Notes under the pieces: model-generated
What the model was told of the DNA's origin: nothing
The model's database searches: none
What the model saw: the letters and a program-made list of their open reading frames with translations, nothing else
Part shown: positions 36,468-63,673 of the stretch, piece after piece
Layout: the number at the start of each line of letters is the position of its first letter
How positions within the stretch are numbered: the stretch's first letter is position 1
Origin: a bacterium
GTDB taxonomy: Bacteria; Armatimonadota; Zipacnadia; Zipacnadales; UBA11051
Direction: 5' to 3'
Length of the DNA: 64,000 nucleotides
Assembly: GCA_030604405.1 (NCBI GenBank)
Contig: JAUVVY010000015.1
Location: forward strand, 1 to 64,000
Program-made: the position numbers and the translations under genes

Positions 36468-36582
36468 GTTGTGGGCCGCTTTCCGGCTGGTAAATACTGC
36501 AAATATCAATTACCAGGCGATTATTATGAGATATCACAATTGCGTGTTGGCACCACACAGCGCCAAGACAAAGGGGCGACCT

Positions 36583-39500: not shown

Positions 39501-41778
39501 TGACCACCCGCTGGAGCCGGTGTATGACACGGTTGTGGGCGATGTGCGTGTCTTTGGCAGCCGCCTGCCGCAAAATGATTACTACTCAGCCGACTCCTCG
39601 CCAGTGCCGATTATTGCACCAGGTGACGAGGTCCAGGTCATCTGGGTCGGCAATCGGCCTAGCGCTGCGGGCGCCGGCTCGGTGCCTGTCACTTGTGCGC
39701 CCGGCGATGACATCAGTGACATCCCCTCCAGCAGTGCAGCGGTCAATCTGCTTTACGCTACAGCCAGCTACGCCGGCGCTGTTGCCGACGACCCGCTCTA
39801 CCGGGCATACGGATGGCCCGTGAGCGGCACTGAGCTCGTTGACGCCTACAACCTCAGCAACGACAGCGCCGCCGGCACGGTGTCCTCCAGCCCGTGGGCG
39901 CTGGGCGATGATGCTGACCGATGGGCCTTCTGGCATCGGCGCCTGCAGCACCCTGGCGGCACCGAATCTACCTTGCGATATGACACCTCAACTGGCGCTG
40001 CCTGGGCCTGGAGCGGCTCAGGCACTGGCGAGTGGATATATGCCAGCGGCCTGCCCAAGGAGAACCTGCGCAGCTTTATTGACGGCGATGACGAGCACTG
40101 GCTTTTCTGGCACACCGGCTCCGAGGGCAAACAGTACCTGATGTATCGCTGGGACTACACACTGGGCAGCACCGATAGCAACGAAGCGCCGGTGCCGGTT
40201 ACCAACCGCGCCAGCCGCGAGTGGCGCGCCGACACCTTCCCGGCCATTGACCCGCGCGATACGTCCACCAACGTGGGGATCAAGAAGCCCACGCAAGGCC
40301 CGTTCACATACACCAAGGACCCCTCTGTGTTCCCTGATCCCAGCGGCAATGTGAACCTGTTCTTCTCCGGCTATGCTCGCTCCGAGCGCGAGGCTGACAT
40401 CTGCTGGACGCGCTTCGACCCCGACGGCATGGACGGGGCGGATACCACTATTCCCAACTACGGCAAGCTCGCCTTCGCCAGGCCACAAGCATCCGGCGGG
40501 CCCTCTGTCTATACCAGTTCGGACAGTTGGCTCAGGATGCCGGAGGAATTCTCAGCTAACGGCTTGCGCCAGGTCTTTACCAGTCGCGGTCTCGACTGGC
40601 TATGTCACGATGACGGGGCCGGCGACGACTTTGCAACCAGCCCGTGGGGTCCTGTTGGTGGCGTCAGCTTCGACCCAACGGATGGCAACTACCTGTGGGG
40701 CAACTCTTACCTGGACCCGGTGTTCTGTCTGGCTCTTATCTACGATGACCCTGACGACGGCCTCAGGCCCCAGACTGAGCTATTCTGGCTCACCTGGGAA
40801 AACGGCACCTATTTCCGCTCGCGCGGAGTCTATCGGGTATTGCCGAAGCTCTACCCGCTCGCCGGAGCATCGCTGAGCGAGCCGCCGGGTGTAGCCGACG
40901 GCAGCGGCTACTTGCTGCAGGACCCATCCGCGCCCAACCGCCGCGTGGTAATGGAGATCAGTCCCGCCACCGGCACCGTCACCTTCAGTTCGCCGCTTTT
41001 CAATATTGATAATCCAGCCGACCCGCTGGCCGTATTCTATGAAAGCATGTCATTGGGCGGCAGCGTCAACCTGGTTGATGTCGCTCTGTTCGGCGCTTAC
41101 CACCCATACGTGTATCGTGTCACTCGCAGCGGTGCCGATGACGACTGCCCGTCCGCCTTTTACAACGCGGATCTTGACCCCAGCCGGCTAACCATATTCT
41201 GGCGCCGTCGTTACCCCGTCAGCAGCCGACCGCATTTCGGCCGCACCGGCTTCATGCACAAAACCTACACGACTTCCGTTCGCGTCGCCAGACCTTCGAT
41301 CGCCAGCGTCGGCTCGGTGGTCAACGCTTACGACACGGCTACCTCCATACCGTACACCGCCGATGCCGATGCACTGGCCGGCGGCATTATCACAGTGTCA
41401 GAAGGCTATATCGGTTACACCTTGCAGGTCACCTACGACAGCGCTGATGGCAGCAACGGTGTGGTGGAATACCACGAAGTGCCCGGCTGGTCGGTGGAGA
41501 CCCCGGTGCCGATCCGTACCGGCGGGGCCGAGGGGCGTCTGGTGGTCAAACCCGAAGCTTACTCGGTTGCCGGCGCCAACACGGTCCGCTACTGGCTGTT
41601 CTGGACCAGTCTGGGCCGTGTCTATGACATGCGCCTGCTCGACGCCTCCAGCACTCGTGTTGACGGCGAGCCGATCATACTTCAGTCGGCGGATGTCTAT
41701 TCTGCCGTCGTATCACCGGACGCTGGGCCGGTCATTCGTGAGCGGCCGATGTCAAGCGTATCGTTCGATCCAACCTAG
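36583..41778 (+). CDS. Giant secreted protein with zinc-ribbon-like cysteine knots
   Basis: About 1731 residues with a signal peptide (RGLVTAALVLIALIGALGLVWAQ). Paired cysteines recur: CPHCGYSS...DCPNPYG (about 58-72), CEFCGY...ICPFHAD (about 547-561), CPDCGG...CSSGHQLCPFCG and CGFCRG (about 694-743). The C-terminal half contains Trp-rich beta repeats (WLFWHTGSEGK, YWLFWTSLGRVYDMRL) suggestive of a sialidase-like or propeller fold, and DTDGDGALDF. No family is recognised over the whole length. ATG 36583 after AAGGGG gives a clean signal peptide; the longer start overlaps the previous gene. Last gene of the prepilin operon. Confidence 0.65.
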   Translation: MRGLVTAALVLIALIGALGLVWAQLDPPPCPYEMRAYVDSTTDSTRQFNLSTIRATYVCPHCGYSSYHGEGEDCPNPYGVTGHSTAMNLVAVARKTRVLAATLQSMAAGARDYEYTNTAGSIIGRAMLGKVFHPEDGTNADRSTLHLQTCDVAGADPADTIGAASRLRLFIMPPGVTRPCATQIDLDNISSEGGGDLFDADDDAATIKDTYIEIGLNPYRVDNGDEWLVRYTRTEDAGGNLTSVQVQVASLLYGFDLDITDTNPTAAGNNCYITNSGGLVVTLHHNNVSFDITDGTSETWLFHFTVQSNAYIMPSHCFDDMGGVGFPSVISDADDLTDWAWSDLFPVLTDAKQCWLTPTGGVITDTSAIVHAGAGTPTPYVIPANMVGVGIAAAQYSNVGDDVGLPHDGSGDWRFYKNWEWQYDYQETVTNEEVAQAQDLDAPPAAPSDGNFRATSGGTDTHQQWVQHLGECHYFSSRVELPPPSEPWVHSDGTATPGWPNADYPRIVVGEPDGSGNIAGEYGPGANTATRPFYLYNRFDDGTNPRRCEFCGYITQAAICPFHADRNNTSALTTYYRASAALCRKLAVSGEVESTGGTAPTRHVLPEAAFKYHEYNRYVYPIEVSSATAGQLAVHFDIPKYQPPSVPAAAGANYQNDLSGDEGYRGGLIMCADQRNYPSGSSGLSGGWDVFYRCPDCGGLTPDPASHVCSSGHQLCPFCGAEYPRNYDGDFSQAGNQCGFCRGTGTLGVITGNDTVQEHDLWCEEYDVGDLQVSVLRKAAMRATVPAVQIGRVQPGVTTTRPDTNVQNIAGGYRAFPSDTSPRIALPVLNLGNVTSPIRIANVNDPAAASAELSLPHYSRIEVPAYDYSYTRIAQSTPITRLTLQSYNPALLADAEWDITSALPFSTGGTELFGRLQAGYSGYPLPLGQPAGTYLGQTLYFLDTDGDGALDFEIGGPGGAATDTFSTQFDPLADHPLEPVYDTVVGDVRVFGSRLPQNDYYSADSSPVPIIAPGDEVQVIWVGNRPSAAGAGSVPVTCAPGDDISDIPSSSAAVNLLYATASYAGAVADDPLYRAYGWPVSGTELVDAYNLSNDSAAGTVSSSPWALGDDADRWAFWHRRLQHPGGTESTLRYDTSTGAAWAWSGSGTGEWIYASGLPKENLRSFIDGDDEHWLFWHTGSEGKQYLMYRWDYTLGSTDSNEAPVPVTNRASREWRADTFPAIDPRDTSTNVGIKKPTQGPFTYTKDPSVFPDPSGNVNLFFSGYARSEREADICWTRFDPDGMDGADTTIPNYGKLAFARPQASGGPSVYTSSDSWLRMPEEFSANGLRQVFTSRGLDWLCHDDGAGDDFATSPWGPVGGVSFDPTDGNYLWGNSYLDPVFCLALIYDDPDDGLRPQTELFWLTWENGTYFRSRGVYRVLPKLYPLAGASLSEPPGVADGSGYLLQDPSAPNRRVVMEISPATGTVTFSSPLFNIDNPADPLAVFYESMSLGGSVNLVDVALFGAYHPYVYRVTRSGADDDCPSAFYNADLDPSRLTIFWRRRYPVSSRPHFGRTGFMHKTYTTSVRVARPSIASVGSVVNAYDTATSIPYTADADALAGGIITVSEGYIGYTLQVTYDSADGSNGVVEYHEVPGWSVETPVPIRTGGAEGRLVVKPEAYSVAGANTVRYWLFWTSLGRVYDMRLLDASSTRVDGEPIILQSADVYSAVVSPDAGPVIRERPMSSVSFDPT

Positions 41779-41977: not shown

Positions 41978-43378
41978 ATGGCTCGGGGCGCAACTCACGT
42001 GCTGGGCCTTGATATTGGCACGCAGACCATAAAGGCTGTTGAACTCCGCCTCAGTGGGCCTGATGTTGTGCTTGAGGGGCGGCCTGCAGTCATACCGACG
42101 CCGCCCAATAGCGTCGTCGGCGGCCGTGTTGTGGACGAGGAGGCAGTCAGCCAGGCCATCAGTGAGGCTGCCTCCGAATACGGATTCAGCGTCAAGAAAG
42201 TCGTCGCCTCTGTTGGCGGCGAGACCGATGTGGTCGTAAGAATCGCCGAATTGCCTCGCATGGAACCCAAGGAGCTCGACGACGCTGTCCAGTTGGAGCT
42301 CGACCGTCAAACCCCGTTCGCGGTTGACCAGGTCATATATGATTTTGAGGCCGTAGAACACCCCGGTGTTAGCCCGCAAAGCGAGAATATGGAAGTCCTG
42401 TTGGCTGTCGCACAGGAAGACATGGTCAACGCCCATGCCGAGACCATCTTGGGCGCAAAGATGACGCCGGTCGCAATTGATGTTGAGCCCCTGGCATTAG
42501 GGCGCGCACTCGTAGAACTCGGCGACGAAGCCGCCATGCAGTCAACAGTTGTCACTGTCAACATCGGCCATACTGGGTCCCTTATCTCAATTTTCTGCCA
42601 GGGCGTACCTGTGTTCATCAGAACCATACCGACTGCCGGCGAAGCACTTACCGCAGCCATCAGGCAGAACGCCCAATTCGGAGAACAAGACGCCGAACGC
42701 GCCAAGCGCCAGTTTGCTGACGTTACCGGCCTTTTCGCCTACGAAGAGGAAGAAGGCGAATCTGAAGACGAAGAAGACGACTTCGTTGACGAGGACACTG
42801 ACTCGGTTTTCGAACTCGCTGAGTCCGAAGCCGCCGAAGAGGCGGATGAAGGCGCCGGGGATACAGATGCAATGGCCACACACGTCGACGTGGACGCGCA
42901 GAGCTACGAACTCCCACCCGACCAGCCTGTAGAGGCCGAGCCGGCCGACCAACAACCGCCGGGCGAAGAGGCAGAAGCCGAAGCGCCTGAGCAGGCCGCT
43001 GAGCCCGCCACCACTGAGCAACAAGCCGAGGCAGCGGAGCCGATTTCTGAAGAAGAGCAGTGGGCCCGCCAGCGGATCTCAGAAGCCCTCGTTGACCCGT
43101 TGACCGAGCTGGCTACCGACCTACAGCGCTCTATCCAGCACTACCAGCGACAGCATCGGCAGGAACAGATTAGCACCATTATCCTGTCTGGAGGCAGCGC
43201 GGCCATACCCGGCCTGGCCGCGTTTCTCGGAGCCGAACTCCGCATCCCCGCTAAAGTTGCCGACCCATTTGCCAATATTCAGTTCGATCCCGATGAGGTC
43301 TCCAAAGCCTACCTGCGTGATGTCGGACCAGCGGTCAGCATCGCTGTCGGACTCGCGCTCCGCGATATGCTGGACTGA
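41978..43378 (+). CDS. pilM: Type IV pilus assembly protein PilM with an acidic insertion
   Basis: 466 residues against roughly 350 for usual PilM. The actin-like fold is clear: LGLDIGTQTIKAVEL, KKVVASVGGETDVVVRIAELP, VTVNIGHTGSLISIF, and the late nucleotide loop IILSGGSAAIPGL. Residues 251-362 are an insertion very rich in Glu/Asp/Ala/Pro (EEEEGESEDEEDD and a later Pro-Gln-Glu stretch) placed between the two halves of the C-terminal subdomain. PilM binds the PilN N-terminus at the inner face of the membrane. ATG with AGGGAG site. Confidence 0.92.
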   Translation: MARGATHVLGLDIGTQTIKAVELRLSGPDVVLEGRPAVIPTPPNSVVGGRVVDEEAVSQAISEAASEYGFSVKKVVASVGGETDVVVRIAELPRMEPKELDDAVQLELDRQTPFAVDQVIYDFEAVEHPGVSPQSENMEVLLAVAQEDMVNAHAETILGAKMTPVAIDVEPLALGRALVELGDEAAMQSTVVTVNIGHTGSLISIFCQGVPVFIRTIPTAGEALTAAIRQNAQFGEQDAERAKRQFADVTGLFAYEEEEGESEDEEDDFVDEDTDSVFELAESEAAEEADEGAGDTDAMATHVDVDAQSYELPPDQPVEAEPADQQPPGEEAEAEAPEQAAEPATTEQQAEAAEPISEEEQWARQRISEALVDPLTELATDLQRSIQHYQRQHRQEQISTIILSGGSAAIPGLAAFLGAELRIPAKVADPFANIQFDPDEVSKAYLRDVGPAVSIAVGLALRDMLD

Positions 43379-46060: not shown

Positions 46061-46846
46061 ATGAATACCAAGTTTCAGTTTCACATCTGCGGCGGCATAA
46101 TCTGCCTTATGGTGCTGTCCACCTTGCTTGTCGCAGGCACCGCCGGCGCGCAGGACGATGCCAAATTCTCTGTGCAGTTTGCGGACACTGCCTTGTCAAA
46201 GGTCCTCGAAGCGTTCAAGCGCTTCAATCCCAGCTTCGCCTACACCCTGCCTCCCGGCGCAGAGAACAAGCGTATCACCGCCGCGTTGGTTGACGTCAAT
46301 GTGGACGAAGCGCTCACTATTGTTCTCGGACAGGTCAACCTGCGGTTTGTCAAAGATAATAATATCTATTCAATCCGCGAAAAGCCGCAGCGGGCCACCG
46401 GCCGCGCGGACCGGCCAATGCCCCAATATGGGGCTCCGATCTTCGCGCTCAGGCCGGCATCGCCGACCGCCGAGGGCGCCGGCGCCGCGGCTACGACCAC
46501 ACCGGGTGAGGGCGTGGGAGCCGAAGAAGACGAGCGTGCGAACCTGCCGATCCGACTGCTCAAGATCAGGTACGCCGATCCCGCCATGATCTCTACCCTC
46601 TTCGGCGGCGAGGTCATCTATGGTGGTGAGGAGAGTATGACGGGTGGCGGCGGCGGAGGCGGCGGTCGCGGTGGTGGCGGCCGTGGTGGCGGCCGTGGTG
46701 GCGGCAGTTATGGCGGCGGTGGCGGTCGCGGTGGCGGAAGCTATGGCAGCAGCAATCGTGGTGGCTCCAGCCGCGGCAGCAGCAGCCGTGGCAGCAGCAG
46801 CCGCGGCAGCAGCGACAGAGGCGGTTCCAGCCGCAATCGCTACTAG
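46061..46846 (+). CDS. STN-domain periplasmic protein with a Gly/Arg/Ser tail
   Basis: 261 residues. Signal peptide (IICLMVLSTLLVAGTAGAQ), then an STN/secretin N0 domain (about 28-110: FADTALSKVLEAFKRFNPSF...VNVDEALTIVLGQVNLRFV...NNIYSIRE), then LPIRLLKIRYADPAMISTLFGG, which looks like the first strand and helix of a secretin N1 domain. Instead of a secretin pore, the last 60 residues are Gly/Arg/Ser repeats (GGGRGGGSYGGGGG, RGSSSRGSS). It may cap or extend the PilQ periplasmic vestibule, or be a truncated secretin paralogue. AGGAGG site; 252 residues are encoded before the tail ends in NRY. Confidence 0.72.
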   Translation: MNTKFQFHICGGIICLMVLSTLLVAGTAGAQDDAKFSVQFADTALSKVLEAFKRFNPSFAYTLPPGAENKRITAALVDVNVDEALTIVLGQVNLRFVKDNNIYSIREKPQRATGRADRPMPQYGAPIFALRPASPTAEGAGAAATTTPGEGVGAEEDERANLPIRLLKIRYADPAMISTLFGGEVIYGGEESMTGGGGGGGGRGGGGRGGGRGGGSYGGGGGRGGGSYGSSNRGGSSRGSSSRGSSSRGSSDRGGSSRNRY

Positions 46847-46997: not shown

Positions 46998-47127
46998 GCC
47001 ATTTTAGAAGCCTTATAATCATCTGAGCATCAGATGTTTGTCCTAACGCACACAGCACTTGAATACAGCAAATGACATGGGCCAAGAGATGCAGCCATTA
47101 CGTGACAGTGCCCCAGGGAGGGGAGTT

Positions 47128-48807
47128 ATGCGAAGCTCCAAGAGTTGGCAGCAGAAGATGATAGCAACCTGCGTTATCGCAATGCTGGCTATATCCGCCG
47201 TCTGTGGCCGAGTCGCGCCTGCTCAGTCAGAGGCCGACATCCCCAATGAGCAGCACCTCATAAATATTGATGTCAAAGACGGAGCCATAGATGCGGTGCT
47301 GCGCATGCTGGCAAAGGCGGCCGGAGTTAATATCGTGATCGGCGAGAACGTGACCGGGCGCGTCGAGACGGTGGTACTTCGCGACGTGACCGTCGAGACC
47401 GCCCTGGAGATGATCACGATAGCGCAGGGGTACCATTGGTACCGTAAAGACAACGTCTATCTCGTCACCGCTGAGCCGTTCCCAGGCGCGCTTGAGAGCC
47501 AAGGCGCACTCACCTCTGGAATCGGCGGGCCAGGACCAGAGCGGGCTACTGGACGGGGGCCCGCCGTCGGCACACCTGAGTTGGCTCCTGCCGAGACGGC
47601 GCGTGCCCTCTCACCGCCGCCCGTAACGCCCCACGATCCGTCAACCATTGTAACTCCGGGCGCGCCCGGCGAGCCGAAGATAGTAATCAAGTATTTGCCG
47701 CTCAAATTCAAAGATGCCGAGGAGTTGGCTTATGCCTTTGGCGGCACAGCCTTCGGCGGCAGTACGCCCGGCGAGAAGTTTCCAGCGTTCCGACTTTCGG
47801 ATCGCAGACACCTCACCGGCGCGACTCCGAAGTCTTACGCCGGTCCGGACGTTTTTGGCGGCGACTCCTCATCTAGCTCGCGCTGGGGCCAGCAGCCGGG
47901 CCTCGGTACTGGCAGGTCCAGCCGCGGCGCTACTAGTGGTAGGGGCGACACCGGCGGTAGAGGCGGCGTCGAGGGCTTTCTCCCCGGCGACATGGAACCG
48001 CCTGTCGCATACATGCCCGAAAACGCCTTGATTGTCCAGGGCACTCAGGCCGAGATTGATAAGTTCACTGAAATCGTTGAAATGCTCGACGTACGCGCCA
48101 AGCAAGTCGAAATCAGGACCAAGTTCGTGGATGTTCTGACTACGGAGGCGAACGCATTCGGCATTGATTGGACCGTTGCCAACGGCGCGCTGGAGTTCTG
48201 GAATCTCGGCTTTGCCCCCGGCGAAGCCATCAACAATGTTGTCAGGTATGCCAGGGGCCGCTTCCAGGCAACCTTGGCCGCTCTGCAGAGCGAGGGCCGG
48301 GCGACTGTGATCAATGCACCCCACGTCATATGTCCCAACAACCAGTTCGCTATGATCAGCTTCTACACCACGATCCCCTACTACACCTCGACTACCGAGT
48401 ACAACCAGTTCGGCCAACGTATCGCCACCGAGATCGAATGGGAAGAAGCCGAGATCGAAAACACGCTCGAGGTTATGCCCCGCATTAACGCCGATGATAC
48501 CATAACCATCGTGCTCTTTCCGCTACTCGAGGACCAGATCGGCGAAGTCATCGGGCCTAATGGTGAAAGCATGCCCATTATCGTCTCGCAGACAGTTGAG
48601 ACGACGGTTACCGTCGCTGACGGTGACACCATCGTCTTGGGCGGACTGATACGGAAGGATGAGAGCTACACGTATCAGAACACCCCACTCTTGAGTAAGT
48701 TGCCGATCATTGGAAAACTATTCCGCTCCAAGCGCGCCCGCAGTTCTAACTCCGAACTGCTCATCTTCGTCACGCCCAGGATCATCCGCGACGTGCCGCC
48801 GCAATAA
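47128..48807 (+). CDS. pilQ: Type IV pilus secretin PilQ
   Basis: 559 residues. Signal peptide (MIATCVIAMLAISAVCG), N0/STN domain (INIDVKDGAIDAVLRMLAKA...GYHWYRKDNVYLV), N1-type domains (VIKYLPLKFKDAEELAYAFGG; ALIVQGTQAEIDKFTEIVEMLDV) separated by a Gly-rich linker, then the secretin barrel: QVEIRTKFVDVL, IVSQTVETTVTVADGDTIVL, GGLIRKDESYTYQNTPLLSKLPIIGKLF split over 48640-48725, and LLIFVTPRII. It forms the outer-membrane pilus channel. ATG 47128 with GGGAGGGGAG is better than 47059. Confidence 0.95.
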   Translation: MRSSKSWQQKMIATCVIAMLAISAVCGRVAPAQSEADIPNEQHLINIDVKDGAIDAVLRMLAKAAGVNIVIGENVTGRVETVVLRDVTVETALEMITIAQGYHWYRKDNVYLVTAEPFPGALESQGALTSGIGGPGPERATGRGPAVGTPELAPAETARALSPPPVTPHDPSTIVTPGAPGEPKIVIKYLPLKFKDAEELAYAFGGTAFGGSTPGEKFPAFRLSDRRHLTGATPKSYAGPDVFGGDSSSSSRWGQQPGLGTGRSSRGATSGRGDTGGRGGVEGFLPGDMEPPVAYMPENALIVQGTQAEIDKFTEIVEMLDVRAKQVEIRTKFVDVLTTEANAFGIDWTVANGALEFWNLGFAPGEAINNVVRYARGRFQATLAALQSEGRATVINAPHVICPNNQFAMISFYTTIPYYTSTTEYNQFGQRIATEIEWEEAEIENTLEVMPRINADDTITIVLFPLLEDQIGEVIGPNGESMPIIVSQTVETTVTVADGDTIVLGGLIRKDESYTYQNTPLLSKLPIIGKLFRSKRARSSNSELLIFVTPRIIRDVPPQ

Positions 48808-50005: not shown

Positions 50006-50025
50006 CTTGTAATTGCTGATTGGGA

Positions 50026-50850
50026 ATGTCCAGGCAAAACGTGAATGCAAGAAAGGACGCAATTCATCCGTTGCTCTGGCTGGGCCTGGTGTTGTGGGCC
50101 AGCATAAAGGGCATTGTTGCCATCATCTTCACCATCGCCATCTTCATCGGCATCGTGTCACTGCTGGTTCTGGCGGCTCTCGGCTACGGGCCCGAGGAAG
50201 TCGCGGTGCCCAATGTTGTCAACATGCCGCTGGAGAAGGCCACGCAGGTGATGAGTGAAGCCGGGGTTGAGCTTGAGGTCGCACGTGAGGTGCACAATGC
50301 CAAGACGGCTGACGGCTGCGTGATGGAGACCAGACCGGCAGCCGGCAAGGTCACCAGGGAAGGTCGCACAATCTACGCCGTAGTAAGCCTCGGTCCCAAG
50401 GACGCTAAGGTGCCGAAGGTTGTCGGCCATAGCTCAAAAGCGGCCCAGCAGCGCATCCGCGAGGCGAAGCTGCGGGTCGGCAACGTTGTTTACAAGGCCG
50501 ACAGCAACCCGCGTGACCACGTCATCGAGCAGGCACCGACTGCCGGCACTGTGGTCGGCCGCGACAATCCTGTCAACCTTGTGCTAAGCGGCGGGCCGGA
50601 CTACGGTCGCGCACAGTTGAGTGACAAGCGGACGTTATTTTTTCGGACCATAAAGGTCACTGTGCCGCAGGGCCAGCCGCTGCAGAGGGTCGTCATCAAG
50701 GTCGCAGCCGGCGAGGCGGAGCTTGAGAAGACGTTTTACAATCGCGTTCACCGGCCCGGAGACGAGATCACAGCCGATTTCTATGCCCCTCAAGGGGCCA
50801 CCTTACAGGTCGTCATAGACAACCGGACGGCACTGAGCAAGAAGCTTTAG
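50026..50850 (+). CDS. Membrane-anchored PASTA-domain protein without kinase
   Basis: About 274 residues. One long TM region (GIVAIIFTIAIFIGIVSLLVLAALGY split at 50110-50190), then two PASTA domains (VAVPNVVNMPLEKATQVMSEAG... and AKVPKVVGHSSKAAQQRIREA...) and a C-terminal beta domain (FFRTIKVTVPQGQPLQRVVI) that I do not recognise. PASTA domains bind muropeptides when attached to kinases or PBPs; here neither partner domain is present. A TTG two codons earlier is an alternative start. It follows aroB by 20 bases. Confidence 0.8.
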   Translation: MSRQNVNARKDAIHPLLWLGLVLWASIKGIVAIIFTIAIFIGIVSLLVLAALGYGPEEVAVPNVVNMPLEKATQVMSEAGVELEVAREVHNAKTADGCVMETRPAAGKVTREGRTIYAVVSLGPKDAKVPKVVGHSSKAAQQRIREAKLRVGNVVYKADSNPRDHVIEQAPTAGTVVGRDNPVNLVLSGGPDYGRAQLSDKRTLFFRTIKVTVPQGQPLQRVVIKVAAGEAELEKTFYNRVHRPGDEITADFYAPQGATLQVVIDNRTALSKKL

Positions 50851-51022
50851 CCTGCATTATTCGTCAACGAAATGACATGTTGAGCAAAGTCAGCCGGTTA
50901 GCCGTGGGGCAACTCTCCACACTTACACCCGTGGGGCAGGCTTCCAGCCTGCCGCCTTTGTCACCAAAGCTTTCTGATGGCAGGCTGGAAGCCTGCCCCA
51001 CGGTCATGAATAATTCGGGCTA
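50847..51022. repeat. MITE-like palindromic element, copy D
   Basis: TTTAGCCTGCATTATTCGTCA at the left end and the complement of the right end (TTAGCCCGAATTATTCATGA) agree at about 16 of 20 bases. Inside, GTGGGGCAGGCTTCCAGCCT plus GCC pairs perfectly with its complement ending at about 51001, a 23-base palindrome with a 25-base loop. The element starts at the stop codon of the PASTA gene. Confidence 0.6.
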
Positions 51023-51097
51023 ACGATGTCTGGGTCGAATTATTGATCGGCTCGTAAGCCGGTCCACGATAGAAAAGGAAGGAAAAGAGTCGCTACG

Positions 51098-51241
51098 ATG
51101 CCGGCTGGGAACCCCTTCAGGGATTATCTGCGAGCCATCCGCGACAAGCTTCAGGTCCAGGGAGCCGGAGAGCACGCGCACCGGGCCGGCCTGCCGGCGG
51201 CTAACAGGTACGCAAGGGGGGAAGCCTGTGACGAAGGGTAG
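51098..51241 (+). pseudogene. Possible fragment of a restriction-modification methylase gene
   Basis: A 47-residue frame after AAGGAAGG begins MPAGNPFRDYLRAIRDKL and continues GAGEHAHRAGL, which recalls the extreme N-terminus of N6-adenine DNA methylases/type ISP enzymes (Y-L-x-x-I-R-x-x-L-x-x-G-x-A-x-E-H-x-x-R). After that it diverges and stops inside the next gene. Probably a remnant; the identification rests on memory of the family pattern. The rest of the 50851-51227 gap is copy D of the palindromic element plus one further GAATTATTGATC end-like sequence. Confidence 0.3.
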
Positions 51242-52691
51242 CAATTATCTCCTAGGTATTGTCTTGAGCACCGTCCTGGTGCTCGGCGCCGCAGGGATGT
51301 CACTGGTTCACGGGGGCGAGGACACCCAGCCGCCGTGGCCTGCGGAGGCACAGCGCCTTCTCGAAGAGGCGAGACGTTTGAGGAAGGAGGGCTACGTCGA
51401 GGAGTCTGATCGAACCTATGAGAGGATCATCGAGCAGTGTTCAGCGGAGAGGGCTGATATTGCTTGTACCGTCTTGGTCGAGCAGGGGACTTGGTATGAG
51501 GGCCGTCGCAATTGGGGCCGGGCGCTCCACTTCTACCGGCAAGCAAGTGAGACCGCGGCGCAAGCTCACAATGAGGCTCTCGCACCCGCTGCAAAGTTCT
51601 GTGTTGCACGCTGCCTCGCATATCAAGGTAGGTCAGAGGCTGCCCACAAACTGCTTGACGGCTTGCTTGATTCTCACCCCGAGGAGGCTGCTCAGCTCCG
51701 ACACATCGAGAGCCTGGTAGAGGCAAAAGCGCTCAGCGACCAAGGAAAGCATCTGGAAGCCTTGAAACTTTTTGACGAGATAGGCGAGCAAGCCACGCGC
51801 GCAGACCTGAGGGCACTTGCTCTATATCACAAAGCTCGAAGTTACTTTGCGTTGCAGAAGCCCGAAGAGGCGTACGGCGCTTATGAGGAGATGGTAGCGC
51901 GCTTCCCGAAGCAGGACATCACCCACTGGGCTTATCGCAGTCTCGGCGCAAAGTACTGGCGGGAGAAGGAATTGGAACGGGCGCTGGCCGTGTATGAGCA
52001 AGAAAAGGTCTCGGGAAACGGCCACGCGGCCCGGGCATCCTATAACATCGCACGGGTAAGTGCATCGCTGCAACGCACAGAAAGAGCCATGAAGGAATGT
52101 CAGAATATCTTAACGAAGTTTCCGGGCAGCCAGGAGGCATTCTGGGCTGTGAATCTTCTAGCAGAGCTGTATATCAAGGACGGAGACGACGCAAAGGCGG
52201 TTGAACTATGGCGCGAATGGTCACAGAAAGACCTGTTCCCAGGCAGACAAGAGATCACGCTACGACTGGCGATATACTATCGATTTCAGACGAAGGAGGC
52301 CGAGAAAGCACTTCCGTTGTATGAGCAAGTTGCCACAGAGATTGCCGAACAACGCACAGCGGCACCAACCCCTCTATCGGCTCACGTTCGCGGACTGGAA
52401 CTGACAGCTCGAATCGAAATTGCGCGGATCGCGAGGGAGCACGGGCGTGTGTCCGAAGCTCTTCAACAGCTTCAGGTATGCACTGAAGAGCTCTCGGGGC
52501 TTTCTGACACCTGGCAAGCAGTCTACGAGATGGCTGACTGCTTGCGCGAGACAGGCGATCTGGAACAAGCGCATGCGGTGTGCAGGGAATTTGTGGCAGA
52601 CCAGGGTGCCAGGCTATCCCCGGATTTGAAACAGCGGCTTATGGAGTTGCTGCAGCAGATCAGCAAGCAACTGGAGGAGCTACCAAAATGA
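51228..52691 (+). CDS. Exported TPR-repeat protein
   Basis: 487 residues. Signal peptide (YLLGIVLSTVLVLGAAGMSLVHG), then about ten TPR-like helical pairs (for example AQRLLEEARRLRKEGYVEES, ALYHKARSYFALQKPEEAYG, FWAVNLLAELYIKDGDDAKA). TPR arrays are protein-binding scaffolds; no partner is evident. The GTG start follows AGGGGGG. By eye the gene is less GC-rich than its neighbours and sits next to a probable methylase fragment, which suggests acquired DNA. The stop overlaps the next gene by 4 bases. Confidence 0.8.
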   Translation: MTKGSNYLLGIVLSTVLVLGAAGMSLVHGGEDTQPPWPAEAQRLLEEARRLRKEGYVEESDRTYERIIEQCSAERADIACTVLVEQGTWYEGRRNWGRALHFYRQASETAAQAHNEALAPAAKFCVARCLAYQGRSEAAHKLLDGLLDSHPEEAAQLRHIESLVEAKALSDQGKHLEALKLFDEIGEQATRADLRALALYHKARSYFALQKPEEAYGAYEEMVARFPKQDITHWAYRSLGAKYWREKELERALAVYEQEKVSGNGHAARASYNIARVSASLQRTERAMKECQNILTKFPGSQEAFWAVNLLAELYIKDGDDAKAVELWREWSQKDLFPGRQEITLRLAIYYRFQTKEAEKALPLYEQVATEIAEQRTAAPTPLSAHVRGLELTARIEIARIAREHGRVSEALQQLQVCTEELSGLSDTWQAVYEMADCLRETGDLEQAHAVCREFVADQGARLSPDLKQRLMELLQQISKQLEELPK

Positions 52692-52963
52692 ATCGTGCTC
52701 AGATTGCACGAGGGAACCTGATCGGCTACGGTCGCGTTGACGGGGGCATGCACGCCGGGCGCTGGCTATACAACGAGGACAAATCGAAGGGCTTCAGGAT
52801 TGCCTCGATCAGCGGCAATACATTTACGCTGGAGGATGTGGAGGAGAATCTGGACGAGATCTTTACCGATGCTGACGGCGATGGCAGGCGGCTGTACTGG
52901 ATTAGCGACATCGGACCCGGGGATACATACCGAATTCCAACCAGCACGTACTACTCCCGCTGA
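52688..52963 (+). CDS. Small hypothetical protein
   Basis: 91 residues from ATG 52688, which overlaps the TPR stop (ATGA). Not recognised. It has a basic start (MNRAQIARGNLIGYGR), a beta-rich middle (FRIASISGNTFTLEDVEENL) and an Asp-rich loop TDADGDGRRLYW. No signal peptide. Coupled translation with the TPR gene suggests a joint function. Confidence 0.6.
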   Translation: MNRAQIARGNLIGYGRVDGGMHAGRWLYNEDKSKGFRIASISGNTFTLEDVEENLDEIFTDADGDGRRLYWISDIGPGDTYRIPTSTYYSR

Positions 52964-53285
52964 GCCGGGCCAGGCTGTCGTCGCCGACACAATATTGTGG
53001 TCGAAAGATGCCATTATTGAGCTTGGGATAAGACCAGTGCGGCTTCGGGCCACTTAGCCCGAATTGTTCATGAACCCGTAGGTCGGGCTTTCTAGCCCGA
53101 CGCTGTTACGGGCCGGCCATGAGCCAGGCTGGAAAGCCTGGCCTACGTGGCATTGCACTGTGTCATTTTCTAGGTATTTTAGGAAAGAGCGCTGTGCTGC
53201 TGGAAATGGCCTTTGCCGGCAATTTCGCCTCGTCTGCGATGGTCTTCGCGAATAATTCGGACTAAGACTGCCTTCGAGGGGTTAA
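52964..53285. other. 322-base intergenic region before the ECF sigma gene
   Basis: Mostly occupied by copy C of the MITE-like element (53052-53266). The remaining sequence holds the GAGGGG ribosome site of the sigma gene. I see no convincing promoter outside the element. Confidence 0.5.
53052..53266. repeat. MITE-like palindromic element, copy C
   Basis: Terminal inverted repeats CTTAGCCCGAATTGTTC (left) and CTTAGTCCGAATTATTC (complement of right) agree at 15 of 17 bases. Inside lies an imperfect palindrome, CGTAGGTCGGGCTTTCTAGC against the complement of GGCTGGAAAGCCTGGCCTACG (53082-53147), and the GTGTCATTTT motif also present in copies A and B. Confidence 0.65.
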
Positions 53286-53864
53286 GTGCCAAACTCGGAC
53301 TCCCAGCTTGTTGCCAAAGCGAAAAGCGGCGATCGTGATAGCTTCGACCTGCTGGTCAAGCACAACTACCTCCTCGTCTATAACACGGCTTACCGCATGC
53401 TTGGCGACAGCGCCACCGCCGAGGACGCCACCCAGACCGCCTTCGTCCGCGCATATGGCTCCCTGAATCGTTTCCGCGGCACCTCGGCCTTCTCCACATG
53501 GCTCTACCGCATCGTCTGCAACGTCTGCCTCGACCTCATCCGTGCTCACAAGGACGAGACCGTCAGCCTGGAGGTCGTCTATGACGACGGGGATGACCCG
53601 CAGCAGATGCCGCTGCCGGATGAGTCCGCTGAGCCGGGGGCCCACGTTGAGCAGTCGGAGCGTCAACGGCTGGTCCATCGCGCCATCTCACAGCTCTCCG
53701 AAGACTACCGCACGGTACTGGTGCTTTACGACATCACCGGGCTTTCGTATGAGGAGATCGCCGAGGCTCTTGAGATACCACTTGGCACGGTAAAGAGCCG
53801 CCTCAACCGCGCCAGGCTTGCACTGAAAGATATAATCGCGCCGGACATGGAACTTTTCTTGTAA
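53286..53864 (+). CDS. ECF RNA polymerase sigma factor
   Basis: 192 residues: sigma region 2 (VYNTAYRMLGDSATAEDATQ and AFSTWLYRIVCNVCLDLIR), an acidic linker of about 35 residues, and region 4 (LSEDYRTVLVLYDITGLSYE, then EIAEALEIPLGTVKSRLNRA). This two-domain layout is extracytoplasmic-function (group 4). GTG start after GAGGGG. The next gene, 44 bases later, is a membrane zinc anti-sigma factor, presumably its inhibitor. Confidence 0.95.
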   Translation: MPNSDSQLVAKAKSGDRDSFDLLVKHNYLLVYNTAYRMLGDSATAEDATQTAFVRAYGSLNRFRGTSAFSTWLYRIVCNVCLDLIRAHKDETVSLEVVYDDGDDPQQMPLPDESAEPGAHVEQSERQRLVHRAISQLSEDYRTVLVLYDITGLSYEEIAEALEIPLGTVKSRLNRARLALKDIIAPDMELFL

Positions 53865-53908
53865 AGCCACAGTCAGACTTATGAAAACATTGGGATCTGG
53901 GGTCTGTA

Positions 53909-55369
53909 ATGCGATGTGAGCAGTGCCGTGAACAGTTCAGTGATCTTTATGACGGCAACCTGAGCCCGGCTGAGGCTGAGTTGGTGCGCGGGCATATTGC
54001 CTCCTGCCCGCATTGCACCGCCGAATATGAGCAGTTCGCCGCGGCCGTCGCAGCCATGCGCAGCCTGGATACGGTCGTGCCGCCCGCGCGCTTGCTTGAC
54101 GACATCCGCACCAGGCTGGATCAGACGCCGGCCCCGATCAGTCTCGCACGCCGTGTCGGCAGGCTGGGGCCGGTGCTCGCCGCAGCCGCCTGCTTTGTGC
54201 TCGTATTCATCGGCGTATTGACATACAACAACTACCGCCCCGGTGGCACGCTCGACCTGCAACCGCCATCGGCGATCCCGGGCAAGGTCTTGCGAGACGC
54301 AGCGCCCCAACCGCAGGCCGAACCCGCCGCCTCAGAAGCAAGTGAGGAGCTTGCGGCGGTCGCCGAAGCGGCTGAAGCCCCCGCGAGGGGAGATGAGGTT
54401 GCCGCGGAGACCGCTCGCGAGACCCCCCCTGAGCCGCCGCCGGTTTCACCTCAGCCGGTCGCTACCACGCCTGCAGCGCCTCCTCCGCCGTCACCGTCAA
54501 GGGCGCCGAGCGTCACGCCGGCGCCACGTCCGGCTCCTCCGCCGTCGCTATCCGATGCAGGCGGCGCCGGGGTCACAGCCGAGCGTCCCGCGCCTGTCAC
54601 CGAGGTGGCTGCCGGTGGCGCTGCTGCTTTCGCAGGCGGGCGGCCGGAAACTCCCCGAGTCGCCCCCGCGGCTCCAGATAGCCTTGGCTTGGCTGCCGAG
54701 CGCCGCGACGCTGAGGTCACATATCTTGCCGGGGGTGCGGACAGAGCCGCTCGGCCGAGGCGTCTGGCAGCGCGAGCGCCGCTGCCGAAAACCGGGAAAC
54801 TGTTTGTGCGTTTCATCCCGCCGCAGCTTCGCCAGGTTGGCCGGCCGGTCACCAGCGCGGTCGTATTGACCGCCGACAAATCGCTGCCGGAGGTGGCGGT
54901 GCGTGTGGAGACCCGCCGCCAGATGCGGCTGTTGCACTGCGAAGACGGCTATATTTATCGTGGGCCACTGGCGGCTGGTGAGCCGAAACAGGTCGAATTC
55001 AAGCTCGTCGCCCGGCACCAGGGAACGCAGCGGCTGCGCGTCAGTGTGGAGACGCCGGTGTCGGGTCTTGAGGCGCAGATGGAGGTCATACTGCCTAGCT
55101 TTGAGACCGGCGTTGTGCAGCCACCGCAGGACCCGCTGGGTGAGCCGATAACCGTCATCTTCAGGGAGACGCCACTGCGTCAGGCACTGCTGCAGATCGC
55201 CCGCCAGGGCCGGGTCAATCTCGTGCTGGGGTCCGGAGTGAGCGGCGAGCGCGTCACCTACTCCTGCATTGACACTCCCGGCGGCTCTGTAATCCGCATC
55301 CTGGCGGACAACTACGGCTATCGAGTCGAGTTCCAGGACGACACTTACTATATCTCCGGGGCACGCTGA
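53909..55369 (+). CDS. Membrane anti-sigma factor (zf-HC2) with a periplasmic STN domain
   Basis: 486 residues. Residues 1-40 are a zinc anti-sigma domain (CEQC near the start, then HIASCPHC, the H-x3-C-x2-C motif) expected to bind the ECF sigma factor. A TM helix follows (about 85-108: VLAAAACFVLVFIGVLTYNN), then a 170-residue Pro/Ala-rich spanner, a beta domain (about 290-415), and at 420-486 an STN/secretin-N0 fold: ITVIFRETPLRQALLQIARQ, RVNLVLGSGVSGERVTYSC, NYGYRVEFQDDTYYISG. STN domains normally sit in secretins and TonB receptors. Here one is fused to the anti-sigma factor itself, so signal may pass from a periplasmic STN partner. Confidence 0.85.
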   Translation: MRCEQCREQFSDLYDGNLSPAEAELVRGHIASCPHCTAEYEQFAAAVAAMRSLDTVVPPARLLDDIRTRLDQTPAPISLARRVGRLGPVLAAAACFVLVFIGVLTYNNYRPGGTLDLQPPSAIPGKVLRDAAPQPQAEPAASEASEELAAVAEAAEAPARGDEVAAETARETPPEPPPVSPQPVATTPAAPPPPSPSRAPSVTPAPRPAPPPSLSDAGGAGVTAERPAPVTEVAAGGAAAFAGGRPETPRVAPAAPDSLGLAAERRDAEVTYLAGGADRAARPRRLAARAPLPKTGKLFVRFIPPQLRQVGRPVTSAVVLTADKSLPEVAVRVETRRQMRLLHCEDGYIYRGPLAAGEPKQVEFKLVARHQGTQRLRVSVETPVSGLEAQMEVILPSFETGVVQPPQDPLGEPITVIFRETPLRQALLQIARQGRVNLVLGSGVSGERVTYSCIDTPGGSVIRILADNYGYRVEFQDDTYYISGAR

Positions 55370-59639: not shown

Positions 59640-61535
59640 ATGGACAACGACGATATTAAGGATGAAATCAAGCGACGGGTTGACATAGTCAGCCTGGTGT
59701 CTCGCTACGTCACACTGCAGCGGGCCGGCCGTCGCATGCGTGCACGGTGTCCCTTTCATGAGGAGACACAGCCCTCGTTCTATGTTGACCCGGCAGGCGG
59801 GTTCTACCACTGCTTCGGCTGCGGTGCCGGCGGGGACGTATTCTCATTTCTGATGCAGATCGAGGGCCTGACATTCCCGGAAGCGGCCGAGCGGCTCGCT
59901 GACATGGTAGGCCTGCAATGGCGGAGCAGTCCCGCTGCCAAGCAGGCGAGCCGCCAGCGCGACACTATCCGCAGTGTCAACGAATACGCCGATGAGTTTT
60001 TTCAGCAGACACTGCACAGCGCCGCAGGTGCCGCTACCAGAGAATATCTCACAGAACGCGGTATCAGCAGCGAATCAGTGCAGAAATTCAACCTGGGGTA
60101 TGCTGCGGATAGTTGGGATGCCTTGCTGCGGTTCCTGGCAGGCAAGGGCGTCAGTGGCGAGGTGGCAGACCAATGCGGCCTGGTCAAGCCCCGCGCCACC
60201 GGCGGCTACTACGACGCCTTTCGCAACCGTGTCATCTTTCCCATCTACGAGGTCAACGGGCGTGTTATCGGTTTTGGCGGCCGCACGCTGGACCCGGACG
60301 AGAACGCCAAGTATATCAACTCGCCGGAAACGGCGCTTTTCAAGAAAGGCCGGACGGTCTATGGCCTGAATCTCGCCCGCCAGGCGATATCGGACGCCAA
60401 TCAGGTCCTCGTCGTCGAGGGCTATACCGACGTCATCTCAGTTGTTCAGGCCGGCATCGGCAATGTCGTGGCGTGCCTGGGCACTGCGACGACCACCGAC
60501 CATCTCCGGCTGCTCGGCAGATATGCCGACGAGATCGTGTTTGTATATGACGCGGATGCGGCCGGAATGGCAGCGGCCCTGCGCAATATCGAGATATTCG
60601 AAACCGCAGCCGCGGATGTCAAAGTAGCCGTCTTGCCGGCCGGACAGGACCCTGACGAAGCTGTACGGAGCCTCGGAGCCGAAGGCTTCATGGGCGTCAT
60701 CGAAAAGCGCCTCAGCCTCGTCGAGTACCAGTTGCGGATGATCTTCCTGTCCCATCAGGAGCAAACCGGCAGCGACCGTGCCGCCGCCGCCCGCGAGGCG
60801 GCGCAGGTGCTGACCAAGGTCCCCGATGCAGTCCGGCGCAGCGAATTTCTCGCGGCCGCTGCCGACTGGTGGGGACAGGACAATCCCGCTCGCACCGAGG
60901 CCATGCAGCGGGTGCTCACCGAAGAGCTGCGTAAAGCGATGCCCCCGGGGCGCTACGGCCGAGGCCGTTATGGACAAGCACGCTACGCGGGTCAAAAAGA
61001 CCGGCAGTTCATCACCGACGCTGTGTCAAGGTCCGCCGAAGGCCACCCAGCCGGCTGCCTGAAGATGGAAGCTGCCATGCTTTCGGCCGCGCTGGCTGAC
61101 GAGGGCTTTGCAGGGCGGATGGCCGAGCGCCTGGAACCTGAAGACCTCGTGGACGAAAGAGACCGGGCCATTTACGCCCTGCTGCTTGAGCACCTGCAAT
61201 CCGCCGAAACCTATGCCCCCCAGACGGTCATTGACAGGCTGCCGGAGCAGGGAGCTGTGCGCGACCGGGGAGTGGAATTGTGGATGCGGGAGGTAGATTG
61301 TGAGGATCAGCGGAAGGTGCTTGACAGCAACATGGAGAAGTTGCAGAGATACCGCGCTTGGCGGGATTGGCAGGAGCAGAGCAGACAGATAGCCCAGGCG
61401 ATTGACCGCGGCGAGTTGTCGCCTGACAGCCCCGAGTATCTGGAATTCAAACGCCGCAGTGCGGAACTGGGTGGGCCCGGCAGCAACGGCTATCACGCCT
61501 ACGAGGCTGACTGGGGCGTCACCAATAATGATTGA
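59640..61535 (+). CDS. dnaG: DNA primase
   Basis: 631 residues. CHC2 zinc domain (C37, H40, C58, C61, with [11 protein letters not shown] and [13 protein letters not shown]), the RNA polymerase domain with [17 protein letters not shown] and [13 protein letters not shown], the TOPRIM motifs [15 protein letters not shown] and [15 protein letters not shown], and a C-terminal helicase-binding region (about 470-600). It makes RNA primers for replication. Placed directly before rpoD, as in the macromolecular synthesis operon of many bacteria. Confidence 0.96.
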
Positions 61536-61600
61536 GATACCGGCCCCGAAGCCGACGCCGGTATTCAAGAGACCGAAGCAGACGAAGGGAGTTGACATTC

Positions 61601-63673
61601 TTGGCAGAGGGGAAGGACCTCGATCCTCAACAGATGGAGGAAGTCCAGTCTCTGATAGCGCTCGGACGTGAGCAGGGCATGTTGTCGTACAGCGATATTC
61701 AGGAGGCGCTGGGCGACACAGAAGAGCTGGACACCGAGGCCATTGAGGAGATCTACTGGCTAATCGCCAAGGCCGGTATTCGCGTTGTTGATGATGACGA
61801 ACGCGATGTGGCCAACGACAGCGGTGATGGCGACAGTGACGAGGTCGCCGACTTCGATGATGTGCCTATTGACGATACGGTTCGGATGTATCTGCAGGAC
61901 ATCGGCCGGGTGTCGCTGCTTTCCGCCGAAGAAGAGGTGACTCTGGCCAAGCGCGTTCAAAAGGGCGAGGGCGAGATCGTCTTTGACCGCGTCAGGAACT
62001 GTCTCATCTTTACGCCGTACCAACGCCTGGGCCCGGACTGCGCGTACACTGTCAGCGTCCGCGGCGGTGTCGGCGGCGTCCATGACGTTTGCGGACAGTA
62101 CCTCGAGAAGGACCTTAGCTGGGATTTTCGCACGGCCGCCGCTGACAAGGAGATCAAGATACTCGCCACAGATCCCGATGACAGCGAAGCCGACGTCGAG
62201 GTCAGCACCGTAATCCGTGTCAGACTGAACGAAGTCATTGCGCCACAGACCCTGGATGAGGAAACCATTGTGGTCGAAGATTCAAAGGGCCGCCGGGTCC
62301 CCGTGCAGTGGACTGTGAGTTCCGGGGAATGGCAACTTGAGATCGTGCCCAGGGAGCCGCTGCGCCATCGGACGACCTTCAAAGTCAAGCTCAAAGGCGG
62401 CGCCAGCGGTGTGCTCGGAGAGAGCAGACGCCAGTTTAGCCGGGGTGTCTCCTTCAAGTTCACCACGTGTCATCAGAAGCGCTCGCCGAAGGTTGTGACC
62501 AGCAGCCCCGGGGACGGCGAGTGCAATGTGGAGCCTGCCGCCACGGTCAAGATCGCGCTCGACCGCCGTCTCGTAGCGAAATCGGTCAACAAATCCACCG
62601 TGCAGTTGCGCGGTGAGGATGGCAAGGCCGTGAGCGGCATGGTGGACTACGACGACGTCGCCCGAGCTATTCACTTTGTTCCCGACGAGCCGTTTGCTAA
62701 CCAAGCATCTTATACCATCCGCCTCAAAGGCGGCAGCAGGGGGGTTAAGGCGGTCAATAACACCCACCTATCCGATGACTGGGAAGCCAGCTTCCAGAGC
62801 GCAGCCACCTGCTCGCCGCCGCAGGTCGTCGCTTGCAGTCCGGAGCTCGACGCCCAGGACGTAGGGCCACGGCTGTCGCTGAGGACTTATTTCTCGCACC
62901 GCCTCGACCTCGCCAGCGTTGATCCCACGGCGGTCCGCCTCAAGGACGAGGAAGCGACCGCGGCCCTCACCGAGGCGAACCTGCGCCTGGTGGTCAGCAT
63001 CGCCCGTCGCTACACCGGCCGCTCCAGCATGAGTTTTCTGGATCTGGTGCAGGAAGGCAATATGGGGCTGATGCGCGCGGTCGAGAAATTTGACTACCGC
63101 AAGGGCTACAAATTCAGCACCTACGCGACCTGGTGGATCCGCCAGGCCATCACCCGCGCTATCGCCGACCAGGGCCGCATCGTTCGCATCCCCGTCCACA
63201 TGGTCGAGACAATCAACCAACTGGCCAAGACCTCGCGTCAGTTGCTCCAGCAACTCGGCCGGGAGCCGACCTTGGAAGAGGTAGCCGCAGAGATGGACAT
63301 GCCGCTTTCGCGCGTAGCCGAGATCAAGCGCATCGCTCCCGAGCCGCGATCGCTGGAGGCCCCGGTCGGCGAAGAAGAAAACAGCCATCTCGGCGATTTC
63401 GTCCCCGACGAAGATGCCGACACGCCGGTGGAGGTCGCCTCCAACGTCGTCCTACGCGAACAACTCGAAAAGGTCCTCAGCACACTCAATGAACGCGAGC
63501 GCGAGGTGCTCAAGCTGCGTTTCGGCCTGGAAGACGGCTACTCTCGCACCCTCGAGGAAGTGGGACATATCTTCGAGGTGACCAGAGAGCGGATCCGGCA
63601 GATCGAGGCCAAGGCGCTGCAAAAACTCCGCCACCCCTCTCGTAACAAAGAGCTTCGCGACTATCTCGAATAG
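61601..63673 (+). CDS. rpoD: Primary sigma factor RpoD with Ig-like repeats inserted after region 1.2
   Basis: 690 residues from TTG 61601 (AAGGGAG at 9 bases; an upstream TTG at 61532 adds an Arg-rich stretch). Region 1.1 ([18 protein letters not shown]) and 1.2 ([20 protein letters not shown]) are normal up to LAKRVQKG (residue 122). Residues 123-448 are then Ig-like, and the sigma sequence resumes at [20 protein letters not shown] with intact regions 2 ([20 protein letters not shown]), 3 and 4 ([20 protein letters not shown]). Without the insert it would be an ordinary sigma of about 364 residues. E. coli sigma70 has its helical non-conserved region at the same place. The reading frame is intact across both junctions. 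This appears to be the housekeeping sigma factor. Confidence 0.95.
61967..62944 (+). other. In-frame insert of SbsA/Big_5-type Ig-like repeats in rpoD
   Basis: 978 bases, 326 codons. Three aligned repeat ends are visible with a spacing of 111 residues: [40 protein letters not shown] and [20 protein letters not shown], each closing with a Phe-x-[TS] strand at residues 176, 287 and 398. Three N-terminal halves follow the pattern [IV]xxxxPxxxxxxVxxxxxVxxxxxxxLxxxSVxxxTVxLxD (184-225, 295-338, 406-448). The order is C-half, whole, whole, N-half. Such domains are normally found in S-layer and other surface proteins. Confidence 0.85.

What the first reader, a model, noticed from the sequence alone, without database searches (positions are those of the whole stretch)
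53286..55369. ECF sigma factor with an anti-sigma factor ending in a secretin/TonB-receptor STN domain
Seen: zf-HC2 motif, one TM helix, long Pro-rich spanner, then an STN-like C-terminus similar in pattern to the N0 domains of PilQ and the 46061 protein. Known: in FecA/FecR systems an STN domain of the receptor talks to the anti-sigma factor in trans. Inferred: here the STN domain is built into the anti-sigma factor, which could compete with or monitor secretin N0 assembly and report pilus or envelope status to the ECF sigma factor.
Basis: partly seen in the sequence, partly recalled or inferred. Interest (0 to 1): 0.72.

Follow-up and report, generated by a model that had tools for sequence, protein, structure and literature searches.

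The report
Pilus-secretin-linked anti-sigma factor
Next to the genes that build its type IV pilus, this uncultured bacterium carries a gene switch (a sigma factor) held by a membrane protein whose outer end looks like part of the pilus outer-membrane pore, so the cell may be able to sense the state of that pore and change its gene expression.

Summary
53286-53864 encodes an ECF sigma factor. A profile of 22 orthologues gives significant PDB sequence matches only to PilQ N0 domains (4ar0, E 2e-6). The orthologues align to the N0 of PilQs from the same loci (hhalign E 1e-17; controls E > 0.08). AlphaFold gives the expected fold at pLDDT 90-96.

The gene order pilM-N-O-P-(STN)-pilQ-aroB-PASTA-ECF-anti-sigma is kept on one strand in 27 genomes (WS1/Zipacnadia, Armatimonadota), one of them outside the class. 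The genome has no TonB plug domain, so no FecA-type partner.

What differs here is the zf-HC2 anti-sigma domain, the Ig-like domain, and linkage to a pilus secretin instead of a TonB receptor.

Most likely this is FecR-like cell-surface signalling whose trans partner is PilQ N0. Domains and linkage are shown by computation; partner, signal polarity and regulon are inferred. It is a new variant of a known kind.

The parts
53286..53864 (+). ECF sigma factor (192 aa, GTG start), regions 2 and 4
   Evidence: Pfam Sigma70_r2 E 4.4e-20, Sigma70_r4_2 E 5.7e-19; TIGR02937 above cut-off; conserved upstream of the anti-sigma gene in all loci examined with both
53909..55369 (+). Anti-sigma factor (486 aa), 44 bases after the ECF stop
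   Evidence: Domain searches, orthologues and AlphaFold model
53915..54016 (+). zf-HC2 (ZAS-type) anti-sigma domain, residues 3-36
   Evidence: Pfam zf-HC2 E 3.1e-9 over cut-off; HxxxCxxC conserved in orthologues
54167..54232 (+). Single transmembrane helix, residues 87-108
   Evidence: Predicted helix over a hydrophobic stretch preceded by basic residues
54236..54778 (+). Pro/Ala-rich linker, about residues 110-290, predicted disordered
   Evidence: pLDDT mostly below 50; variable in length and sequence between orthologues
54797..55108 (+).
   Evidence: Eight strands at pLDDT 93-97; Foldseek matches to Ig-like domains (complement MG, CARDB, PapD-like)
55145..55357 (+). STN / secretin-N0-like domain, residues 413-483
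   Evidence: Family profile hits PilQ N0 4ar0 E 2.3e-6; hhalign to PilQ N0 E 1.2e-17; pLDDT 90-96
47059..48807 (+). PilQ secretin, proposed partner; N0 domain about residues 66-142
   Evidence: Secretin E 3.3e-39, STN E 5.5e-8; synteny
46061..46846 (+). Second STN-related protein before pilQ, alternative partner
   Evidence: STN E 1.2e-4; orthologues in the same place; hhalign to the anti-sigma STN E 1.6e-11
50020..50850 (+). PASTA-domain protein, directly upstream of the ECF gene in relatives, usually 23-76 bp
   Evidence: PASTA E 9.2e-21; gaps read
41978..43378 (+). PilM, start of the conserved pilM-N-O-P-STN-pilQ run
   Evidence: PilM_2 E 2.4e-52; synteny

Best explanation
The pair is a cell-surface signalling module that works like FecI/FecR but is wired to the type IV pilus. 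The zf-HC2 domain holds the ECF sigma factor at the inner membrane. A single TM helix and a flexible ~180-residue spacer carry an Ig-like plus STN head into the periplasm. The STN head pairs with the N0 (STN) domain of PilQ, or with the second STN protein of the operon, in the way the STNs of FoxR and FoxA do. A change in secretin state (missing, unassembled or gated PilQ) alters that contact. By analogy with FoxR, contact probably protects the anti-sigma; loss of contact exposes it to site-1 and site-2 proteolysis, freeing the sigma factor. Shown by computation: sigma and anti-sigma domains, the STN domain and its affinity to PilQ N0, conserved gene order with pilQ, absence of TonB plug domains, presence of S41 and M50 proteases. 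Inferred: topology, partner, polarity, proteolysis and target genes.
For: STN identity: significant PDB profile hits are PilQ only; NCBIfam hits among members are mainly PilQ and HofQ; hhalign to PilQ N0 E 1e-17 with clean controls; confident fold. The two-domain region's best Foldseek hit is a FecR-type anti-sigma (4m0h), with PupR 6ovk and PilQ 4av2 also among the top hits. Linkage: pilQ-aroB-PASTA-ECF-anti-sigma on one strand in 27 genomes from at least eight families, one of them outside the class, usually with PASTA-ECF gaps under 80 bp, while genes downstream are mostly not kept beyond the genus or family. The Ig+STN region is found in 33 of 46 class genomes, 32 with the STN. No TonB plug in the genome; 9 secretin-domain places. 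M50 and S41 proteases present. STN-STN contact between anti-sigma and partner, and protection from proteolysis, are reported for Fox (PMC11637429).
Against: No direct evidence of contact with PilQ. One orthologue (L012, G038) keeps the Ig domain but ends before the STN although that genome has a PilQ-like STN hit. In G045 the zf-HC2+STN gene is not next to pilQ and lacks the Ig domain (L097). G043 (f9) has the pil-aroB run without the pair (L113). In the window itself a ~2.4 kb stretch with a TPR gene separates PASTA from ECF. No ECF promoter motif enrichment near pil genes. STN domains also bind other periplasmic proteins.
Confidence: 0.58

Rival explanations
1. The anti-sigma senses general envelope or peptidoglycan state through the Ig-like domain, linker and the neighbouring PASTA protein; the STN domain serves only for self-association or stability, and synteny with pilQ is incidental.
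For: PASTA gene lies directly upstream in nearly all relatives; the Ig-like domain is conserved alongside the STN; L012 keeps Ig but not STN.
Against: G045 (L097) keeps zf-HC2+STN and lacks the Ig domain; the STN is specifically closest to PilQ N0; the order with pilQ is kept across families while downstream genes change.
Confidence: 0.22
2. The trans partner is another STN protein, either the 46061 product or one of the other secretins, not PilQ itself.
For: 46061 is STN-related, sits in the same run, and aligns to the anti-sigma STN (E 1.6e-11); nine secretin-domain places in the genome.
Against: The profile match to PilQ N0 is stronger (E 1.2e-17); the other secretin places lie on other contigs, while PilQ is the linked one.
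Confidence: 0.15
3. A classical FecIR system for a TonB-dependent receptor.
For: STN at the C-terminus as in PupR (PMC7186176); FecR_C matches in 10 of 22 members; FecR-domain places exist elsewhere in the genome.
Against: No TonB plug domain in a 97% complete genome; no FecR domain in this protein; no receptor gene adjacent.
Confidence: 0.03

Closest known systems
FecR/PupR/FoxR cell-surface-signalling anti-sigma factors (PupR CCSSD, PDB 6OVK; PMC7186176, PMC11637429)
   Same: Cytoplasmic anti-sigma domain, one TM helix, periplasmic beta domain followed by a C-terminal STN domain; paired with an adjacent ECF sigma.
   Different: Anti-sigma domain is zf-HC2; the middle domain is Ig-like, not the FecR/CJM fold; long disordered spacer; linked to pilQ, and the genome lacks TonB plug domains.
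PilQ N0 (STN) domain, e.g. N. meningitidis 4AR0
   Same: Closest sequence and fold relative of residues 413-483.
   Different: Here it caps an inner-membrane anti-sigma factor at the C-terminus instead of lying before a secretin domain.
zf-HC2 (ZAS/ASDI) anti-sigma factors such as RsiW
   Same: N-terminal zinc-binding HxxxCxxC anti-sigma domain, one TM helix.
   Different: Large Ig-like + STN periplasmic head on a Pro/Ala spacer.

Membership tests
zf-HC2 (class I / ASDI) anti-sigma factor | N-terminal zf-HC2 domain with Hx3Cx2C, next to an ECF gene | tested here: met
   Pfam E 3.1e-9 above cut-off; HIASCPHC; ECF gene adjacent
zf-HC2 (class I / ASDI) anti-sigma factor | Binds and inhibits the cognate ECF | not testable with these tools
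   Needs an experiment
STN domain family | Sequence profile match to STN/N0 domains | tested here: met
   Family profile to PilQ N0 E 2.3e-6; hhalign E 1.2e-17 with clean controls; the single window protein is below Pfam's cut-off
STN domain family | beta-alpha-beta-beta-alpha-beta-beta fold | tested here: met
   AlphaFold model pLDDT 90-96 with that order; PilQ N0 4ar0 and PupR among Foldseek hits
FecR family (CSS anti-sigma) | FecR domain (PF04773) | tested here: not met
   No hit at E up to 1
FecR family (CSS anti-sigma) | C-terminal FecR_C/STN domain | tested here: inconclusive
   FecR_C in 10 of 22 members, best E 5.7e-5, same number of members as STN and weaker than the PilQ profile match
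FecR family (CSS anti-sigma) | Cognate TonB-dependent transducer | tested here: not met
   No Plug domain in the genome, none adjacent
Type IV pilus cluster | Conserved linkage with pilM-pilQ | tested here: met
   27 genomes with the same order and strand; exceptions G045, G043

The most novel reading that the evidence does not exclude
A bacterial class uses a secretin-to-sigma-factor signalling pathway: the anti-sigma's STN domain docks on PilQ N0 and reports pilus-secretin assembly to an ECF sigma factor, extending cell-surface signalling from TonB receptors to secretins.
Probability: 0.5. Interest if true: 0.8.

Novelty: new variant of a known kind. Interest (0 to 1): 0.62.

Why it matters
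STN domains were named for being shared by secretins and TonB receptors, but the STN signalling described in the papers read here runs from TonB receptors to sigma factors. An anti-sigma with a PilQ-N0-like tip, encoded in the pilus cluster of an organism that lacks TonB receptors, would be the secretin counterpart and would give a direct way to ask how cells sense assembly of a pilus machine. No paper on such a system was found in the open-access library searched.

Tried and rejected
Single-protein scans alone were too weak for the STN claim, so orthologues were needed. Generic ECF promoter patterns in the window were at or below chance. Upstream regions of cluster orthologues showed no convincing enrichment; the ASF signal lies inside the ECF coding region and the pilM expectation was distorted by locus edges, so this test is uninformative. 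FecA-type partner rejected: no plug domains. Named-genome scan with the single protein found nothing; with a family subset it gave five named MAGs. Two-domain Foldseek superpositions have low TM-scores (0.34, rmsd near 20 A) because domain orientation differs, so only the single-domain similarity is relied on. No plasmid relatives. The main ECF reclassification paper was not held, so the ECF group was not assigned. The tallies '45 of 46' and '257 of 291' include PilQ hits and were not used as counts of the anti-sigma.

Full report
The window lies in a 4.37 Mb draft genome (G000, contig C76). Named relatives carrying the same gene are candidate division WS1, Candidatus Zipacnadia and Armatimonadetes MAGs. 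The window holds a large type IV pilus locus: PilB- and PilT-type ATPases, PilC-type protein, prepilin peptidase and pilins at 16-28 kb, then PilM, PilO, PilQ and neighbours at 42-49 kb.

The observation. 53286-53864 is an ECF sigma factor. The next gene, 53909-55369, starts with zf-HC2 (E 3.1e-9), has one TM helix (87-108), a Pro/Ala-rich, low-confidence stretch to about 290, then two confidently predicted domains: an Ig-like sandwich (298-400) and an STN-like domain (413-483).

Is the STN real? Single-sequence evidence is marginal. I collected orthologues from the order and class, where the same layout (zf-HC2, TM, variable spacer, Ig-like, STN-like) recurs at 21-87% identity in the STN part. 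A profile of 22 of these domains hits N. meningitidis PilQ N0 (4ar0) at E 2.3e-6; the top seven PDB hits are all PilQ, and no PupR, FecA or FpvA chain passes E 10; the longer Ig+STN profile agrees. NCBIfam matches among members are mainly PilQ and HofQ. hhalign against N0 of PilQs from the same loci gives E 1.2e-17 over 75 columns; a PASTA profile and 20 column-shuffled profiles give nothing. AlphaFold places the domain at pLDDT 90-96 with the STN strand/helix order. Foldseek's best hit for the two-domain region is a FecR-type anti-sigma (4m0h), with PupR (6ovk) and PilQ (4av2, 4ar0) among the hits, although the two-domain superposition itself is poor.

Gene order. In relatives, pilM-pilN-pilO-pilP-(STN protein)-pilQ-aroB-PASTA-ECF-anti-sigma run on one strand. 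I count 27 genomes, the window included, where the contig reaches from ECF back to pilQ and the order holds; in four of these (L102, L104, L106, L115) the anti-sigma gene is cut by the contig end, and in L108 it is recognised only by the profile. One (G066, L098) lies outside the class. PASTA-to-ECF gaps are mostly 23-76 bp, which suggests one operon. In the window a ~2.4 kb stretch with a TPR gene and an inverted-repeat element separates PASTA from ECF; the 230 bp just before ECF is conserved in G001. Genes further downstream (ADH, lipoprotein, dnaG, rpoD) are mostly not kept beyond the genus or family. The Ig+STN region appears in 33 of 46 class genomes, one of which (G038) lacks the STN. 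Exceptions: G045 has an unlinked zf-HC2+STN gene without Ig (L097), G043 has pil genes without the pair nearby (L113).

Mechanism. In the Fec/Pup/Fox systems the anti-sigma ends in an STN subdomain; in PupR both subdomains are needed to bind the receptor's STN (PMC7186176), and in Fox the receptor's STN contacts the anti-sigma's STN and protects it from proteolysis before the signal arrives (PMC11637429). So an STN built into an anti-sigma is known. Here there is no TonB plug domain in the genome, while PilQ with its N0 is in the same cluster. The simplest reading is that PilQ N0 takes the receptor's role. The long spacer would let the head reach a secretin ring held by the outer membrane (inference). 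M50 and S41 proteases that could carry out the release steps are encoded, but both families are widespread and this is weak support. Which secretin state is the signal, and which genes respond, is unknown; the promoter search was uninformative.

Membership. It is a zf-HC2 anti-sigma factor by domain and context. It is not a FecR-family protein: the FecR domain and a TonB partner were tested and not found. It works like FecR if the inference holds. Novelty: new variant of a known kind.

Noticed in passing
window 61532-63673 (+): Primary sigma factor (RpoD: regions 1.1, 1.2, 2, 3, 4) with bacterial Ig-like domains (Big_5, E 2.8e-32, two stretches) inserted between regions 1.2 and 2, about 330 aa. 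It is the strongest region-3 match in this genome, and near full-length matches at 51-92% identity occur in most relatives searched across the order. Ig-like domains inside a cytoplasmic housekeeping sigma factor look very unusual.
   Followed up: partly
window 50850-53285: Region between PASTA and ECF holds a TPR protein gene not found in the relatives' loci and an inverted-repeat element (about 53077-53147, GTAGGTCGGGCTTTCTAGCCCGAC...GGCCTAC) just before the ECF gene.
   Followed up: partly
L016, L025, L029, L079 anti-sigma linkers: Collagen-like GPAGPAGPAG runs in the periplasmic spacer of several orthologues.
   Followed up: no
window 36343-41778 (+): 1811-aa protein upstream of pilM, conserved in several relatives, no Pfam match; the preceding 1861-aa and 1017-aa proteins also have no Pfam match.
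   Followed up: no
G000, 8 places: Several proteins with FecR domains in a genome without TonB plug domains.
   Followed up: no
L097 7518-8687: Shorter zf-HC2+STN anti-sigma without the Ig-like domain, not next to pilQ, in another family of the class.
   Followed up: partly
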